Of a stretch of DNA of 64,000 nt, positions 123-55,800 are shown piece after piece. Positions within the stretch are counted from its first letter, which is position 1. Each line of letters begins with the position of its first letter. The position numbers and the translations under genes were made by a program. The DNA is from Salinispira pacifica (lineage in GTDB: Bacteria > Spirochaetota > Spirochaetia > DSM-27196 > Salinispiraceae): contig NC_023035.1 in assembly GCF_000507245.1 (NCBI RefSeq), positions 1,527,501-1,591,500 of the forward strand, in the 5' to 3' direction. Under the pieces are notes generated by a model, which was not told where the DNA came from, made no database searches, and was given only the letters and a program-made list of their open reading frames with translations.

Positions 123-334
123 GCCTGCGACTCTGTAGGTTATAGCAAAATCCTTTGGATTTCGCTGGTATTGGAGCCTGCGGCTCTGTAGGTTATAGCA
201 AAATCCTTTGGATTTCGCTGGTATTGGAGCCCGCGGCTCTGTAGTTTGTAGCAAAATCCTTCGGATTTCGCTGGTATTGGAGCCCGCGGCTCTGTAGTTT
301 GTAGCAAAAACCTTTCAGGTTTTCGCTAGGGGTT
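123..334. repeat. Four tandem copies of a 53-bp hairpin repeat upstream of obgE
   Basis: Copies begin at 123, 176, 229 and 282 with an exact 53-bp period. Each holds a G+C-rich palindrome-like part (GGAGCCCGCGGCTC in copy 3) and a hairpin, GCAAAATCC with GGATTTCGC. The third copy has a TTCG loop. In the last copy both arms change together (ACCT with AGGT), so pairing is kept. The stretch 64-343 holds no gene. The array lies between the upstream terminator and obgE, so it would be in the obgE 5' leader if the promoter is to its left. Confidence 0.85.
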
Positions 335-26302: not shown

Positions 26303-26375
26303 CGGGGTGTAGCGCAGTGGCTAGCGCGCGTCGTTCGGGACGACGAGGCCGCGGGTTCGAGTCCCGCCACCCCGA
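26303..26375 (+). tRNA. tRNA-Pro (anticodon CGG)
   Basis: The acceptor CGGGGTG (26303-26309) pairs with CACCCCG (26368-26374), with discriminator A. The anticodon stem CGTCG/CGACG encloses TTCGGGA, giving CGG at 26336-26338. The T arm is GCGGG-TTCGAGT-CCCGC. The 3' half of this gene is echoed in each unit of the tandem array that follows. Confidence 0.95.
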
Positions 26376-26377
26376 TA

Positions 26378-26418
26378 ACAAAATGGGAGATGATCCAAAG
26401 GGTCATCTCCCATTTTGT
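26378..26418. terminator. 19-bp perfect hairpin after tRNA-Pro, first of the array
   Basis: Positions 26378-26396 pair with 26400-26418 around an AAA loop. The centre is TCC-AAA-GGG, and both ends carry A/T runs, so it can terminate transcription on both strands. Five related hairpins follow at about 229-bp spacing, keeping the loop but changing much of the stem. Confidence 0.85.
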
Positions 26419-26556
26419 ATATTAGGTGAACGGGACTCGAACCGGAGGAACGGCGCGACCGAATAGGGAGCGCAATCCGCCATGGAAGGCGGATTAGTGA
26501 CGGAGGCGGCGCGCGGGAGACGACAGGAGGTCGTCGACCGGAGCGGAGTCCCGCCA

Positions 26557-26603
26557 CCTACGGCTGCATACCCGAGCAGCATTCAGAAAGAATGCGACCA
26601 GGG
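26557..26603 (+). mobile_element. Mini-element copy in array unit 1
   Basis: Flanks TGCATACCCGAGCA and CGACCAGGG enclose the stem GCATTC/GAATGC with loop AGAAA. It sits between GTCCCGCCACC and CCGATTAT, inside sequence resembling the tRNA-Pro 3' end. Confidence 0.7.
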
Positions 26604-26787
26604 CCGATTATAAAAAATGACCAGTCCAAAGGGCTGGTCATTTTTTATATTTAGAAAGGACGGGACTCGAACACCCGAACCGGCGCGAAAACTTGGAGCG
26701 CCGAGGCTCCCGGAAGGAGCCGAGAGGAGAGGGGGCGGCGCGACGGGAGCAGGCAGGAAGCCTGCGACGATAGCGGAGTCCCGCCAC

Positions 26788-26830
26788 CCAAGGAGCATGG
26801 CCGAGCAGGCGCTGGAAGCGCCGACCAGGG
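26788..26830 (+). mobile_element. Mini-element copy in array unit 2
   Basis: Flanks GCATGGCCGAGCA and GACCAGGG enclose the stem GGCGC/GCGCC with loop TGGAA. It splits a sequence otherwise matching the tRNA-Pro acceptor end (GCCACC and CCGATAAC). Confidence 0.7.
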
Positions 26831-27015
26831 CCGATAACAAAATGGGAGATGATCCAAAGGGTCATCTCCCATTTTGTATATTAGGTGAACGGGACTCGAA
26901 CCGGAGGAACGGCGCGACCGAATAGGGAGCGCAATCCGCCATGGAAGGCGGATTAGTGACGGAGGCGGCGCGCGGGAGACGACAGGAGGTCGTCGACCGG
27001 AGCGGAGTCCCGCCA

Positions 27016-27062
27016 CCTACGGCTGCATACCCGAGCAGCATTCAGAAAGAATGCGACCAGGG
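27016..27062 (+). mobile_element. Mini-element copy in array unit 3
   Basis: This is identical in design to the copy in unit 1, with stem GCATTC/GAATGC, and lies exactly 459 bp from it. It was therefore copied with the array unit. Confidence 0.7.
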
Positions 27063-27245
27063 CCGATTATAAAAAATGACCAGTCCAAAGGGCTGGTCAT
27101 TTTTTATATTTAGAAAGGACGGGACTCGAACACCCGAACCGGCGCGAAAATATGGAGCGCCGAGGCTCCCGGAAGGAGCCGAGAGGTGAGGGGGCGGCGC
27201 GAGGGAGAGGACAGGAAGGCGTCGAACGGAGCGGAGTCCCGCCAC

Positions 27246-27288
27246 CCGGGGAACATGGCCGAGCAGGCGCTGGAAGCGCCGACCAGGG
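27246..27288 (+). mobile_element. Mini-element copy in array unit 4
   Basis: It carries ACATGGCCGAGCA, stem GGCGC/GCGCC and GACCAGGG. Its 5' edge (CCGGGG) differs from that of the unit 2 copy. Confidence 0.7.
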
Positions 27289-27473
27289 CCGATAACAAAA
27301 AGGGAGATGATCCAAAGGGTCATCTCCCTTTTTGTATATTAGGTGAACGGGACTCGAACACCCGAACCGGCGCGAAAATATGGAGCGCCGAGGCTCCCGG
27401 AAGGAGCCGAGAGGAGAGGGGGCGGCGCGAGGGAGAGGACAGGAAGGCGTCGAACGGAGCGGAGTCCCGCCAC

Positions 27474-27516
27474 CCGGGGAACATGGCCGAGCAGGCGCTG
27501 GAAGCGCCGACCAGGG
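27474..27516 (+). mobile_element. Mini-element copy in array unit 5
   Basis: Same sequence type as the copy in unit 4, 228 bp further on. Confidence 0.7.
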
Positions 27517-27701
27517 CCGATAACAAAAAGGGAGATGATCCAAAGGGTCATCTCCCTTTTTGTATATTAGGTGAACGGGACTCGAACACCCGAACCGGCG
27601 CGAAAACATGGAGCGCCGAGGCTCCCGGAAGGAGCCGAGAGGTGAGGGGGCGGCGCGAGGGGAGACGACAGGAAGGCGTCGACCGGAGCGGAGTCCCGCC
27701 A

Positions 27702-27745
27702 CCTACGGCTGCATACCCGAGCAAAGCGAAGCATTTCGACCAGGG
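27702..27745 (+). mobile_element. Mini-element copy at the end of the array
   Basis: Flanks TGCATACCCGAGCA and CGACCAGGG enclose a short imperfect stem, AAAGC with GCATTT. The array ends here. The 150 bp that follow (27746-27893) hold no gene that I can recognise. Confidence 0.65.
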
Positions 27746-27893: not shown

Positions 27894-28208
27894 TCAAGAT
27901 GCCTTAGGATGTATTTTATTATACTCATCCTGATGTTTTTCTTTTGCAATGTCCAAATCATAAAGCGACTGCAGGTTGATCCAGTATTCTGCAGATGTGC
28001 CGAAAAATATGGAAAAGCGAATTGCTGTGTCGGCGGTGATTTTTCGAGTTCCGTTTATAATTCTGGAAATTCTCATCGGATCAACATCGATCCTTTTTGC
28101 TAATTCATATGCAGTCACACCCATGGCATCAAGAAAGTCTTCCTTGAGCACTTCTCCTGGGGTGGTGAGTTCAATCAGCTCATTACTATATTCAATCTGT
28201 TCACTCAT
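27894..28208 (-). CDS. higA: HigA-type antitoxin
   Basis: The 104-aa protein has the HigA-family XRE helix-turn-helix: TPGEVLKEDFLDAMGVTAYE, LAKRIDVDPMRISRIINGTR and the C-terminal FGTSAEYWINLQ motif. HigA proteins neutralise the mRNA-cleaving HigB toxin and repress their own operon. Its ATG overlaps the stop of the upstream toxin gene (ATGA), the standard higBA order. That toxin gene has lost its 5' end, so this antitoxin may now be an orphan. Confidence 0.92.
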   Translation of the reverse strand: MSEQIEYSNELIELTTPGEVLKEDFLDAMGVTAYELAKRIDVDPMRISRIINGTRKITADTAIRFSIFFGTSAEYWINLQSLYDLDIAKEKHQDEYNKIHPKAS

Positions 28209-28399: not shown

Positions 28400-29094
28400 T
28401 AGCCCCCTTGGCCCGTTCTGCGTGAAGAACGTCTATGATGGTTTCCAGTTTTTCCCGGCTCTCATTTAAAAGAGAAAGATCGGTGGGATATCGAATATCA
28501 CCGGGTACGCAGGTGGCATCAATAAGAAGCTTTCCGCTGTTTTCTTCCTCAGGATCTTCTTCTTTTTCAGCTTCCGTATCATCTTCAGTTTTTTTTACGT
28601 TCTTCGGCAATTATCAATTCATTTGCCCGGGAAATCATGTCCATACTGATTCGCTTTCTGAAGTGGGTCATCCTAGGATGCATGGCCGAGCAACGAGCGT
28701 AGCAAGTGACCAGGCATTGATGGATCAATCGGTGCCTCATCCTGGTACCCCTGCATCCCGATGAGATATTGCAGGTAAGGGGGCTCACGAATCTGCCCTA
28801 CAGTTTCCTCATCTGTAATTCCTAATTTTTCTTGTATAATCAGGGCGCCCAATGCTGTACGGAAACGGATTGCCAAAGCTCCTTGCCCGCTTTGGATAGC
28901 AAACTGTGAAGAATATTCTGCCTCTAAATCTTCCCAGGGAATTAAATCGGCAAGCTGTACTCAGCGGTTATTGGGGATCAGTTTTCCGCCGAACGGTACA
29001 TAGAAATTATGAAATGCAAGCTGCTGTGAATCTTCACTCCGATACATATTCCCCTCCCACTACAAAAGCATGTGTAAGGTTTTTTCAGGAGGCC
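28399..29094 (-). mobile_element. Remnant of an IS related to the tandem IS copies
   Basis: On the minus strand the segment begins with the terminal repeat GGGCCTCCTGAAAAAACC (29094-29077). It continues through a transposase 5' half (LGALIIQEKLGITDEET, PYLQYLIGMQGYQDE, LLIDATCVPGDIRYP) and breaks off inside higB. It is a divergent relative, not a copy, of the IS at 37.8-41.1 kb. It has an in-frame stop (Trp to stop after PNNR), an A8 run at the point where the intact IS has A9, and a 43-bp mini-element inserted in the transposase frame. Confidence 0.88.
28672..28714 (+). mobile_element. 43-bp mini-element inserted in the IS remnant
   Basis: The insert begins CCTAGGATGCATGGCCGAGCA and ends GACCAGG (first 21 bases shown as CCTAGGATGC then ATGGCCGAGCA). 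Removing exactly 43 bp rejoins the transposase codons to give SMMTHFRKRI, matching the intact IS. There is no extra target duplication. Its central stem is the poorest of the set. Confidence 0.85.
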
Positions 29095-36377: not shown

Positions 36378-36422
36378 CCCGGTTGCATGGCCGAGCAACA
36401 ATGCAAAGCATTGTGACCAGGC
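36378..36422 (+). mobile_element. Mini-element inserted in the RHS core (first)
   Basis: The insert begins CCCGGTTGCATGGCCGAGCA, has stem ACAATGC/GCATTGT with loop AAA, and ends GACCAGGC. It splits HSDH from LGSAQLVTDY and introduces a TGA. Its 45-bp length keeps phase, so its removal exactly restores the RHS codons. Confidence 0.9.
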
Positions 36423-42226: not shown

Positions 42227-42269
42227 CTGGTCGGCGGCTGTTGCCACCTGCTCGCCCATGCAACCAGGG
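42227..42269 (-). mobile_element. Mini-element copy, minus orientation
   Basis: Read on the minus strand it is CCCTGGTTGCATGGGCGAGC, A, stem GGTGGC/GCCGCC with loop AACA, then GACCAG: exactly 43 bp. CTGGT near the start pairs with ACCAG at the end. Confidence 0.85.
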
Positions 42270-52835: not shown

Positions 52836-55800
52836 ATGCAGAAGAAGCTTCAGCAGCTTATACATAATCTTGGGCAGCAGACCGAAGGTTTCCGGATTCT
52901 CCTCCTCTATTCCAACAGTCTGGAAGATAAGGGAGTCTTTCCCATCCGCAGCATATTGTCGGAGGACTGGGAGGGTGAGTTGCACTCCTATCATTCGGCT
53001 GGCCGCAGCAGCGAGCCCTGGTTTCCATTTCTTCGCACTCTGCCGGAACGTCCTGAAAACTTTCAGCTCTATCCCCCTCACAGGGAAATTTGGAAAGAAC
53101 TGTATGAAAAGGGTTCCTGTTCCCGCCTCCAGGAGGTGCTTCCCGGGGAGTACGGCTATGAGCGGAGCCGTTTCGCAGCCGCCATCCGGGACGGACTCAG
53201 CCGGGTAGTATCTCCCGGGGACTGCTATTATATTTCAAACGCTCATTATCTCGGTACGGCTTCGGTGGAACTGATTGAAGAATTGGCGAGAGCCGATGCG
53301 GATATGCTTTTGACAATGAGTTTGAATCCCGCACAGTCTCCCGAACTGATGGACCGGTTCGAAGCCATGATGGCCTCCCTTCCCGCTGAACAGGGAGCCA
53401 TAGTTCATCTGGGACAGTCCCTGATTCTCGAACCGGCGCCTCCATGGAAGCCGTTGTTGAATCTCCCTCCCGCCGAACTGCTTCAGACAGCTGTCACTCT
53501 TATGGACTACGACGCCGCCTCCGCTGTTCTGGGCAGTGAAACATCCCCAGCAGCTGCCGAAGATGCGCTTCCTGAAGAGATCTCCCCTTTGGAAGAGTTC
53601 CATGCACGGTTGTTTGAGGGCAGAATGCTTTTTGCCGCCGCACAGTATGATGAAGCTCTTTCACTTTTCCAATCCTGCCTGGCAGTTGCCCGGGAACAGG
53701 GGGCGGATGACAGAATTGCCCTGGCACACTATGAAATCGCACGGACCCACCTGGAGCGGGAATCCCTGGACCACAGCGATTATGCGGTTCAGCTGGCCCT
53801 TCAGTTTGCCCGCCGGGTGAACGATCCTGTGCTGATGTTTCACGGAGATTTTATCCGCTACCGAATTGAAAATAAGCGTCGCTGGAAAAACCCCCAGGAG
53901 TTCAAAAGCTACTACATTGATCTTCTGGAACGGGCCCGTGAACTGAAATTCTGGAACAGCTTCGCATATATCAGCATCAATCCTTTCGGACTCTATTCTG
54001 ACTTTGATCCGGAAATCGCAGGGTATCACAGCCGGGGAATGGACGTATGCCGGGAGCTGGGAAACGATCATCTACTGGCGGTTGCTTACCAGACTGCAGG
54101 GATGTCCCATGCGGTTCTGGGGAACTATCAGCAGGTTCTGCCCTTTTATCAAAAAGCACTGGAGATCACCCGCACCCTGGGCAAGCCTCTGGAAATCGCC
54201 TATGCCAGCAACGGTCTGGGCTTTTTCAACTATCTCACCGGCAACTATGACCGGGCCCAGGAGTTCTACCTTCAGGCGCTTGAGCTTCTTGAGTCCGGGG
54301 AGGACCTTCACGAGGTGGGGATGACCCTGTTTAATATGGGGGTGAATGCTCTCCTGGCCCGGAAATTCCATCTGGCGGCGGAATTGTTTGAAAAGTGCCT
54401 TCAACTGCTCAGCCGTCTCGACCGCCGAAATCTGGCCTATCATTCCCAGTTGGGGATTCTCGTGGTGTACGGGATCGCCTGCATCAAATCGGGCAAATGG
54501 GCCAAAGCCTGGCAGCTGGGAATTAAAATAGACGAACAGCAGCTTCAGCCGACCCCGAGTAAAAATGAAGAGTTTTTCATGCAGCATCTATTTGAGGCAT
54601 TTCTTCATGAGGCCATGGGGAGGCGGGACAACGCCTACGCCTCGTGTATGAACGCTGAATCGTATCTTCCCAAAACAAATGACAATATCCGCTACTTTGA
54701 ACCCTTCTTTTACCTGGAACTGATGGAATTCTGCCGCAGGAATGGAATGGAGCCGGAGTGTGCGCAGGCACAACTGCAGTTTCATCAGGCGGTGGAGGAG
54801 CAGGACAACGCTTTTTACCGGAACCTGGAATCCGGATCTGAATCCGCGTCCGACTCCGACTCCGACTCCGACTCCGACTCCGACTCCGACTCCGAAAAAA
54901 ATCCCCGGGGTGCAGAAATATGGAATCGCCACCCCGACCTGCACTGGATTATCCAGACCGCCGAAAAAGAGCAGCAGATGAGCAAACTCTACTCCCGGAT
55001 GGAGGAACTTCAGCTGATATCTGACCTCCAGGGCTTGTTTGCCAATGCCTCCCGGGAAATTCCGCTGATTCAGGAACTGGTGGACAGGTCGTTTATGCAT
55101 CTGAATGCCGATGATGTGTGGTATATCCGCAGCGATCCCGAGACCGGATCGGATCATATTCTATACCACCGTTCGGTGGAAACCGGCCCTCCGGAGGAAG
55201 GCGGCCGGACCGTCAACAACGACCGGGGCGCCGGGGCACGGCTCCAGCCGGATCCCCTGGCACGGCGCCTGCCTGAAAACATGCGGCGTTTCCCGGTGGA
55301 GGGCCGGAGCGATATCCACGGAAACATTGTGGTGAAATATAATACTGCAATGCGGATCGGAAAGGAGCGGATCCGGCTGTTTTCCATTATTGCAAACCAG
55401 CTGGCGCTGGCACTGGACCGCATCCGGCAGTTCGATGTGATCACCCGGCAAAACGAGGAGCTGCTTCATTCAAACCAGTTTTTGAAGAAGCGTTCTCTCA
55501 GCGATCCACTCACCGAGGTGGGAAACCGCCAGGCTCTTAAAAATGCCCTGTCACATTACGTTGCCCTTCAGCGCAGAAACCCGGATCAAGCGGTGTTCAC
55601 CCTTATTTTTCTGGACTTCGATAATTTCAAGTACACCAATGATCTCTTCGGCCACGACTGCGGGGACCGGGTGCTGATATCCGCCGTCCGGCTGATGGAG
55701 CAAAGCATCCGTGACAGCGATCAACTGTTCCGCTACGGTGGGGATGAGTTTGTGATCATTTTGCCTGACACCCACCGGCAGGGAGGGGAGATCGTCGGAC

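What the first reader, a model, noticed from the sequence alone, without database searches (positions are those of the whole stretch)
26378..27745. Six ~229-bp hairpin-packed tandem units seeded by tRNA-Pro
Each unit combines a 18-19 bp hairpin with constant TCC-AAA-GGG centre but changed stems, a reverse T-arm sequence (GGGACTCGAAC), internal variable stems with GGAA-type loops, a tRNA-Pro-like GAGTCCCGCCACC and a mini-element placed inside the acceptor-end copy. Units alternate (A-B-A-B-C-C'), implying amplification in 459-bp blocks after insertion of the mini-element. Paired changes in the stems suggest selection for folding as RNA or single-stranded DNA.
Basis: partly seen in the sequence, partly recalled or inferred. 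Interest (0 to 1): 0.75.

Follow-up and report, generated by a model that had tools for sequence, protein, structure and literature searches.

The report
Self-folding repeats grafted onto tRNA ends
Many spirochaetes carry, directly behind their tRNA genes, short tandem units that copy that tRNA's own 3' end and fold into one conserved branched shape; this is a large, apparently undescribed counterpart of the old E. coli tyrT/RtT repeat, and may be a tiny mobile element that uses tRNA genes as docking sites.

Summary
Six units lie behind tRNA-Pro(CGG). Each has a terminator-like hairpin, an inverted copy of the tRNA T-arm, a ~119-nt core and a direct copy of the tRNA 3' end. A REP-like mini-element sits in each acceptor-end copy.

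The finding is much larger than the window. The same core follows eight other tRNAs in this genome. It occurs in 27 of 41 same-order genomes and 80 of 393 Spirochaetota genomes sampled, behind about 20 anticodon types. In each place the arms are rewritten to match the local tRNA: 8.8 of 10 bases match it, against 3.3 of 10 for other tRNAs. The core shows overwhelming covariation: 88.7% of cells paired against 31-39% when slid, and 28 of 39 pairs with two-sided changes.

The plus strand is the folding strand. G·T pairs are about fourfold rarer than in tRNA stems of the same loci, and a terminator-like hairpin usually precedes the core. I therefore favour a DNA-level folded site of a small non-autonomous element over a transcribed RNA (confidence about 0.5). 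The enzyme is unknown; RT and Y1 transposase are not required, and IntI shows no association.

The closest known thing is E. coli RtT (RF00391). It has the same architecture, tested here, but no significant sequence or model match.

The parts
26303..26375 (+). tRNA-Pro(CGG), the host gene whose 3' end is copied
   Evidence: ARAGORN and Rfam RF00005
26378..26418 (.). terminator-like hairpin, unit 1
   Evidence: 19-bp arms, 95% complementary, 3-nt loop
26431..26441 (+). inverted T-arm copy, unit 1 (complement of tRNA nt 57-65 region; equivalents at 26661, 26890, 27120, 27348, 27576)
   Evidence: inverted repeats I16-I21; general rule
26433..26551 (+). folding core, unit 1
   Evidence: R2 101 bits, E 2.1e-19
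26546..26558 (+). direct copy of tRNA-Pro 3' end (GAGTCCCGCCACC), unit 1; repeated at 26776, 27005, 27234, 27462, 27691
   Evidence: sequence
26559..26602 (+). REP-like mini-element inside the acceptor-end copy, unit 1 (others overlap 26799-26828, 27033-27060, 27261-27286, 27489-27514, 27719-27743)
   Evidence: pattern GAGCA..GACCAG
26609..26649 (.). terminator-like hairpin, unit 2
26663..26781 (+). folding core, unit 2
   Evidence: R2 E 5.8e-13
26837..26877 (.). terminator-like hairpin, unit 3
26892..27010 (+). folding core, unit 3 (identical to unit 1)
   Evidence: R2 E 2.1e-19
27068..27108 (.). terminator-like hairpin, unit 4
27122..27239 (+). folding core, unit 4
   Evidence: R2 E 2.4e-10
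27295..27335 (.). terminator-like hairpin, unit 5
27350..27467 (+). folding core, unit 5
   Evidence: R2 E 2.6e-9
27523..27563 (.). terminator-like hairpin, unit 6
27578..27696 (+). folding core, unit 6
   Evidence: R2 E 5.2e-13

Best explanation
A family of tiny (~180-230 bp) non-autonomous elements that live at the 3' ends of tRNA genes. A unit consists of the tRNA 3' end (nt ~57-73), usually a terminator, an inverted arm complementary to nt 57-65, and a ~120-nt core that folds on the plus strand. SHOWN: the parts, the conserved fold, the match to the local tRNA, variable unit number, and presence/absence between congeners with the tRNA left intact. INFERRED: the folded plus strand is the working form. 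Its P1 stem displays a double-stranded copy of the tRNA's 57-65 segment, and a recombinase acting in trans joins it to the tRNA gene at that segment. This would work as folded attC or CTXphi attP sites do, restoring the tRNA and leaving the displaced 3' end distally. Arrays then grow and shrink by further insertion or by recombination between copies. Conversion across the palindrome probably keeps the inverted arm matched to the tRNA.
For: Covariation: 88.7% of cells paired against 31-39% slid, 28/39 pairs with two-sided changes; tandem GA/AG invariant in 24/24. Plus strand folds: 281 G-A against 13 C-T mismatches at paired positions. DNA-like pairing: G-T 1.65% and A-C 0.68% in elements, against 6.4% and 0 in tRNA stems of the same loci; G-T by one folding method is 3.1% against 11.5%. 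A terminator-like hairpin separates tRNA from core in 54 of 71 first units. The copied segment runs from nt ~57 to the tRNA 3' end and matches the local tRNA. Unit-level presence/absence: G004 U1+U2, G017 U2 only, G022 U1 only; G032 filled and G037 empty with the same downstream gene. Near-identical cores occur on different tRNAs with adapted arms. Two inverted att-like sites are the published layout of CTXphi, whose folded attP(+) is used for integration (PMC4246890).
Against: No recombinase is identified. IntI lies near units in two lineages, but its canonical attC/attI sequences differ from P1, and it occurs in 7 of 27 unit-bearing and 4 of 14 unit-free genomes. E. coli RtT, with the same layout, is reported as a processed RNA (cited in PMC4986893). 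Some tRNA-Ser units have no terminator before the core and may be transcribed. Low G-T could also come from template-switch correction of palindromes. Unit loss can occur by plain homologous recombination. No circular form or active insertion was seen, and no insertion with fully matching flanks on both sides was found.
Confidence: 0.5

Rival explanations
1. RtT-like structured RNA: the core is transcribed by read-through of, or processed from, the tRNA transcript and acts as an RNA, for example a protein sponge or stress modulator. It stays at tRNA genes because tRNA promoters express it.
For: Same layout as E. coli RtT, which is reported as an RNA released during tRNA processing (PMC4986893, PMC2965389). 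RNA folding z = -4.8. P4 loops read CAGGANG, and there is a sub-threshold RsmZ similarity at the Asn array. Some units in tRNA-Ser operons lack terminators.
Against: Terminator-like hairpin upstream of the core in 54/71 first units. G-T pairs fourfold depleted. The P7 loop is often CGA rather than GGA, against a CsrA sponge. The sponge resemblance is below Rfam's gathering score.
Confidence: 0.27
2. Passive repeat: a palindrome-prone tRNA tail amplified by slippage and homologous recombination. Template-switch correction keeps the hairpins complementary without function.
For: Identical 459-bp block repeats. The inverted arm follows the tRNA rather than the distal copy (43 against 22 sites). 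Low wobble fits templated correction.
Against: A constant ~120-nt, three-branched design with invariant GA pairs and loop motifs across a class needs selection or a trans-acting factor.
Confidence: 0.15
3. Integron integrase IntI uses the units as attC-like sites with the tRNA gene as its platform.
For: IntI lies downstream of and antisense to tRNA plus unit in two independent lineages, within ~2 kb. IntI acts on folded DNA.
Against: Ordinary attI/attC sites (CATAAC...GTTATG) are beside it. Eight other IntI loci have no unit nearby. No association across genomes.
Confidence: 0.06

Closest known systems
E. coli tyrT/tyrV 178-bp repeats, RtT RNA (Rfam RF00391)
   Same: Tandem units behind a tRNA; tRNA 3' end copied from nt 58; spacer of ~57 nt; inverted arm GGGGAAGGAT; GA-rich hairpin core; direct copy ATCCTTCCCCCACCACCA. 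Copy number varies between strains (1-9 places per genome).
   Different: No RtT match in the spirochaete loci even at E 10. R2 scores the three repeats only at E 0.07-0.6. RtT has no terminator in the spacer. Spirochaete units sit on ~20 tRNA types with arms rewritten for each.
Integron attC sites and CTXphi folded attP
   Same: Imperfect inverted copies of a recombination site enclosing a structured spacer; folding on one strand; tandem arrays
   Different: P1 carries tRNA T-arm sequence, not R/L boxes or dif; branched GA-rich core; no gene cassette; no enzyme shown
tRNA-integrated islands and their deleted remnants (CIME-type; from memory)
   Same: Insertion leaves the tRNA whole and a second 3' end distally
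   Different: No genes; ~17-nt copy from nt 57 rather than a longer att; conserved foldable core. The island at tRNA-Arg(TCT) in the same genome copies from the anticodon arm onward.
REP/BIME and MITE repeats (from memory)
   Same: Short non-coding palindromic repeats
   Different: Strict tRNA linkage and host-matched arms; no Y1 transposase in this complete genome

Membership tests
RtT RNA (RF00391) | Tandem units directly behind a tRNA, each ending in a copy of its 3' end | tested here: met
RtT RNA (RF00391) | Inverted arm pairing with the copied tRNA end and enclosing the core | tested here: met
RtT RNA (RF00391) | Match to the RF00391 covariance model | tested here: not met
   No RtT match in 11 unit loci up to E 10, while E. 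coli repeats score 133-138 bits
RtT RNA (RF00391) | Processed RNA product | not testable with these tools
   No expression data
Integron attC site | Folded strand with paired ends | tested here: met
Integron attC site | R/L boxes (CATAAC/GTTATG type in these genomes) | tested here: not met
   P1 is GGAYTYG/CRARTCC; canonical attC in the same genome is different
Integron attC site | Recombined by IntI | not testable with these tools
   IntI presence does not track units
CsrA-sequestering sRNA (CsrB/RsmZ) | Conserved GGA in most hairpin loops | tested here: not met
   P7 loop is CGA in about half of the sequences
CsrA-sequestering sRNA (CsrB/RsmZ) | Rfam gathering score | tested here: not met
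   RsmZ 28.8 against 44; CsrB 17.4 against 71
REP mobilised by TnpA-REP (Y1) | Y1 transposase in the genome | tested here: not met
   None found in G000
Reverse-transcribed (tRNA-primed) element | Dependence on a reverse transcriptase | tested here: not met
   Many unit-bearing genomes, some over 95% complete, show no PF00078 match

The most novel reading that the evidence does not exclude
Spirochaetes host an unrecognised recombination system in which folded single-stranded DNA cassettes without genes are inserted into tRNA genes. The folded stem re-creates the tRNA's own T-arm duplex as attachment site, and the arms are rewritten for each new tRNA. E. coli RtT would be a surviving relative in another phylum.
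Probability: 0.3. Interest if true: 0.92.

Novelty: new variant of a known kind. Interest (0 to 1): 0.77.

Why it matters
It turns a decades-old E. coli curiosity (tyrT repeats/RtT) into a general phenomenon. A large, strongly covarying, tRNA-adapted element family spans one bacterial class. If DNA-level, it would be a minimal mobile element with a folded-DNA site independent of known integrons, and it bears on how T-arm sequences become integration hot spots. If RNA-level, it is a new structured RNA family tied to tRNA expression. Covariance model R2 and the P1 rule make both readings directly testable.

Tried and rejected
CsrA sponge: P7 loops are often CGA, and Rfam scores are below threshold. 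IntI as recombinase: near units in two lineages only, no genome association, different att sequence. Reverse transcription: RT absent from many unit-bearing genomes. Y1/RAYT transposase: absent from this complete genome. A recombinase beside units: tblastn of Xer, IntI and integrase against unit loci found only the IntI case and one weak hit (E 7e-9) in L100. Gammaproteobacterial hit L120: not confirmed by R2. Clean empty site in the G196 genus: the flank queries hit a mobile gene, then an upstream gene away from the tRNA, so nothing was learned. Phage collection: no match. attC as a wobble control: only one site found (both strands), too few. Literature on such elements in spirochaetes: none found in the open library.

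Full report
WHAT IS THERE. The window's six units follow tRNA-Pro(CGG) as described. R2, a covariance model trained on 24 sequences of which two are window units 1 and 2, finds exactly the six cores in 64 kb. A unit reads: tRNA 3' end, hairpin with T-tract, ~12-nt linker, inverted T-arm, ~119-nt core, tRNA 3' end again. In this array only, among those read, a REP-like mini-element interrupts each acceptor-end copy.

IT IS GENOME-WIDE. A DNA search found similar cores elsewhere. The 41 tRNA genes read from the fetched loci were checked one by one. Arrays follow Met(CAT), Asn, Pro(CGG), Pro(GGG), Leu(TAA), Leu(GAG) and Leu(CAG). A degenerate unit follows Val(TAC), and an orphan unit (L076) lies at the far end of a tyrosine-integrase island next to tRNA-Arg(TCT). 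In each case the flanking arms copy that tRNA, not a common sequence.

IT IS CLASS-WIDE. Model R1 found matches in 27 of 41 same-order genomes, 13 of 16 genera. Model R2 matched 80 of 393 Spirochaetota genomes and 38 of 168 genera, nearly all in one class. A pattern scan of 85,000 species returned 29 stretches, 28 titled as spirochaetes; the single gammaproteobacterial stretch was not confirmed by R2. Of 119 distinct matches, 106 have a tRNA upstream on the same strand, 71 within 140 nt; the rest of the 106 are mostly later array units, and most matches without a tRNA lie near contig ends. The ten bases after the core match the local tRNA at 8.84 of 10, against 3.27 of 10 for other tRNA types. 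The commonest run of identity is 11 nt, ending at the last tRNA base.

THE FOLD. On 24 aligned sequences a 39-pair structure has 88.7% of cells paired (31-39% when partners are slid by 1-3 columns), 28 pairs with changes on both sides, and 0 of 500 shuffles reaching it on four of five measures. P1 pairs the inverted arm with the direct copy. P2 opens to P3 and P4; P5 carries a second arm. Helices are joined by tandem G·A pairs; one tandem is invariant in 24 of 24. Loops are C-A[G/C]GAN-G or a hexaloop variant.

WHICH STRAND, WHICH MOLECULE. Mismatches at paired positions are 281 G·A against 13 C·T, so the plus (tRNA-sense) strand is the one that folds. G·T is 70 of 4251 cells (1.65%) and A·C is 29. 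Acceptor and T stems of tRNAs from the same loci show 105 of 1644 (6.4%) and 0. With one RNA folding method for both, G·T is 3.1% in cores and 11.5% in tRNAs. A terminator-like hairpin lies between tRNA and core in 54 of 71 first units. Both facts point to DNA. Template-switch correction of palindromes could also lower G·T, and some tRNA-Ser units have no terminator, so this is a lean and not a proof.

THE ARMS. The inverted arm is complementary to tRNA nt 57-65 (0.99 falling to 0.70), then fades. Where tRNA and distal copy differ, the arm follows the tRNA at 43 sites and the distal copy at 22. In G017 a changed T-arm is mirrored in the arm but not in the distal copy.

GAIN AND LOSS. At tRNA-Leu(CAG) in one genus, G004 has units U1+U2, G017 has U2, and G022 has U1. 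In another genus G032 is filled and G037 empty with the same downstream gene, although about 900 bp differ there, more than one unit. Nearly identical cores occur on different tRNAs with adapted arms (G300 Ser pair 96%; G025 Leu-GAG and G040 Leu-CAG 90%). Nearest neighbours share the tRNA type in 19 of 97 cases against 7.4 by shuffling (maximum 17), so both tRNA-specific descent and switching occur.

ENZYME. Pfam's tyrosine-recombinase family finds four proteins in this genome: two resembling XerC/XerD, IntI, and one by tRNA-Arg. IntI (TIGR02249) lies near a unit here and in genus g4, in the same orientation, but has ordinary attC/attI sites beside it and no genome-wide association. RT and Y1 are not required. 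The enzyme, if any, is unknown.

NEAREST KNOWN. The E. coli tyrV repeats have the same plan: tRNA-Tyr end copied from nt 58, a ~57-nt spacer, inverted arm GGGGAAGGAT, GA-rich hairpin core, and direct copy. Rfam calls them RtT. Their number varies among 4,696 of 5,426 E. coli genomes. Neither model recognises the other group with significance, so homology is unproven. RtT is described as an RNA freed from tRNA transcripts with a possible role in the stringent response (PMC4986893, PMC2965389). I therefore file the spirochaete units as a new variant of the RtT kind by architecture, not as RF00391 members. I give the DNA-site reading 0.5 and the RNA reading 0.27.

Noticed in passing
window 28688-28713 (+), 36393-36420 (+), 42227-42253 (-); L009 2480-2790 (-); L010-L012: REP-like repeat GCATGG-CGAGCA-stem-CGACCAG, dispersed and also arrayed before tRNA-Met; it borders three IS110-family transposase copies (one, L011, confirmed by PF02371/PF01548) and interrupts a unit core in G017.
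   Followed up: partly
L205 6700-9174 (G000:C1 ~2236700-2239170): Integron: IntI of 474 aa with an N-terminal extension, a canonical 126-bp attC and a PIN-domain-like cassette, ~2 kb from tRNA-Val plus degenerate unit.
   Followed up: partly
G000:C1 2436037-2447811: Tyrosine-integrase island at tRNA-Arg(TCT); its far end carries a tRNA-Arg fragment broken by a REP-like insertion, then an orphan unit (L076).
   Followed up: partly
L157, L158: tRNA-Ser clusters with a unit between successive tRNAs and no terminator, where core RNA may be transcribed; a good place to test the RNA hypothesis.
   Followed up: no
G000 (whole genome): Thirteen reverse-transcriptase matches, several near-identical, suggesting group II intron spread.
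   Followed up: no
window 123-315; 54849-54895: A 53-bp tandem repeat (3.6 copies) and a TCCGAC x7.8 hexamer array.
   Followed up: no
window 27894-28208 (-): HigA-like antitoxin ORF (104 aa, by reading only) directly after the array.
   Followed up: no
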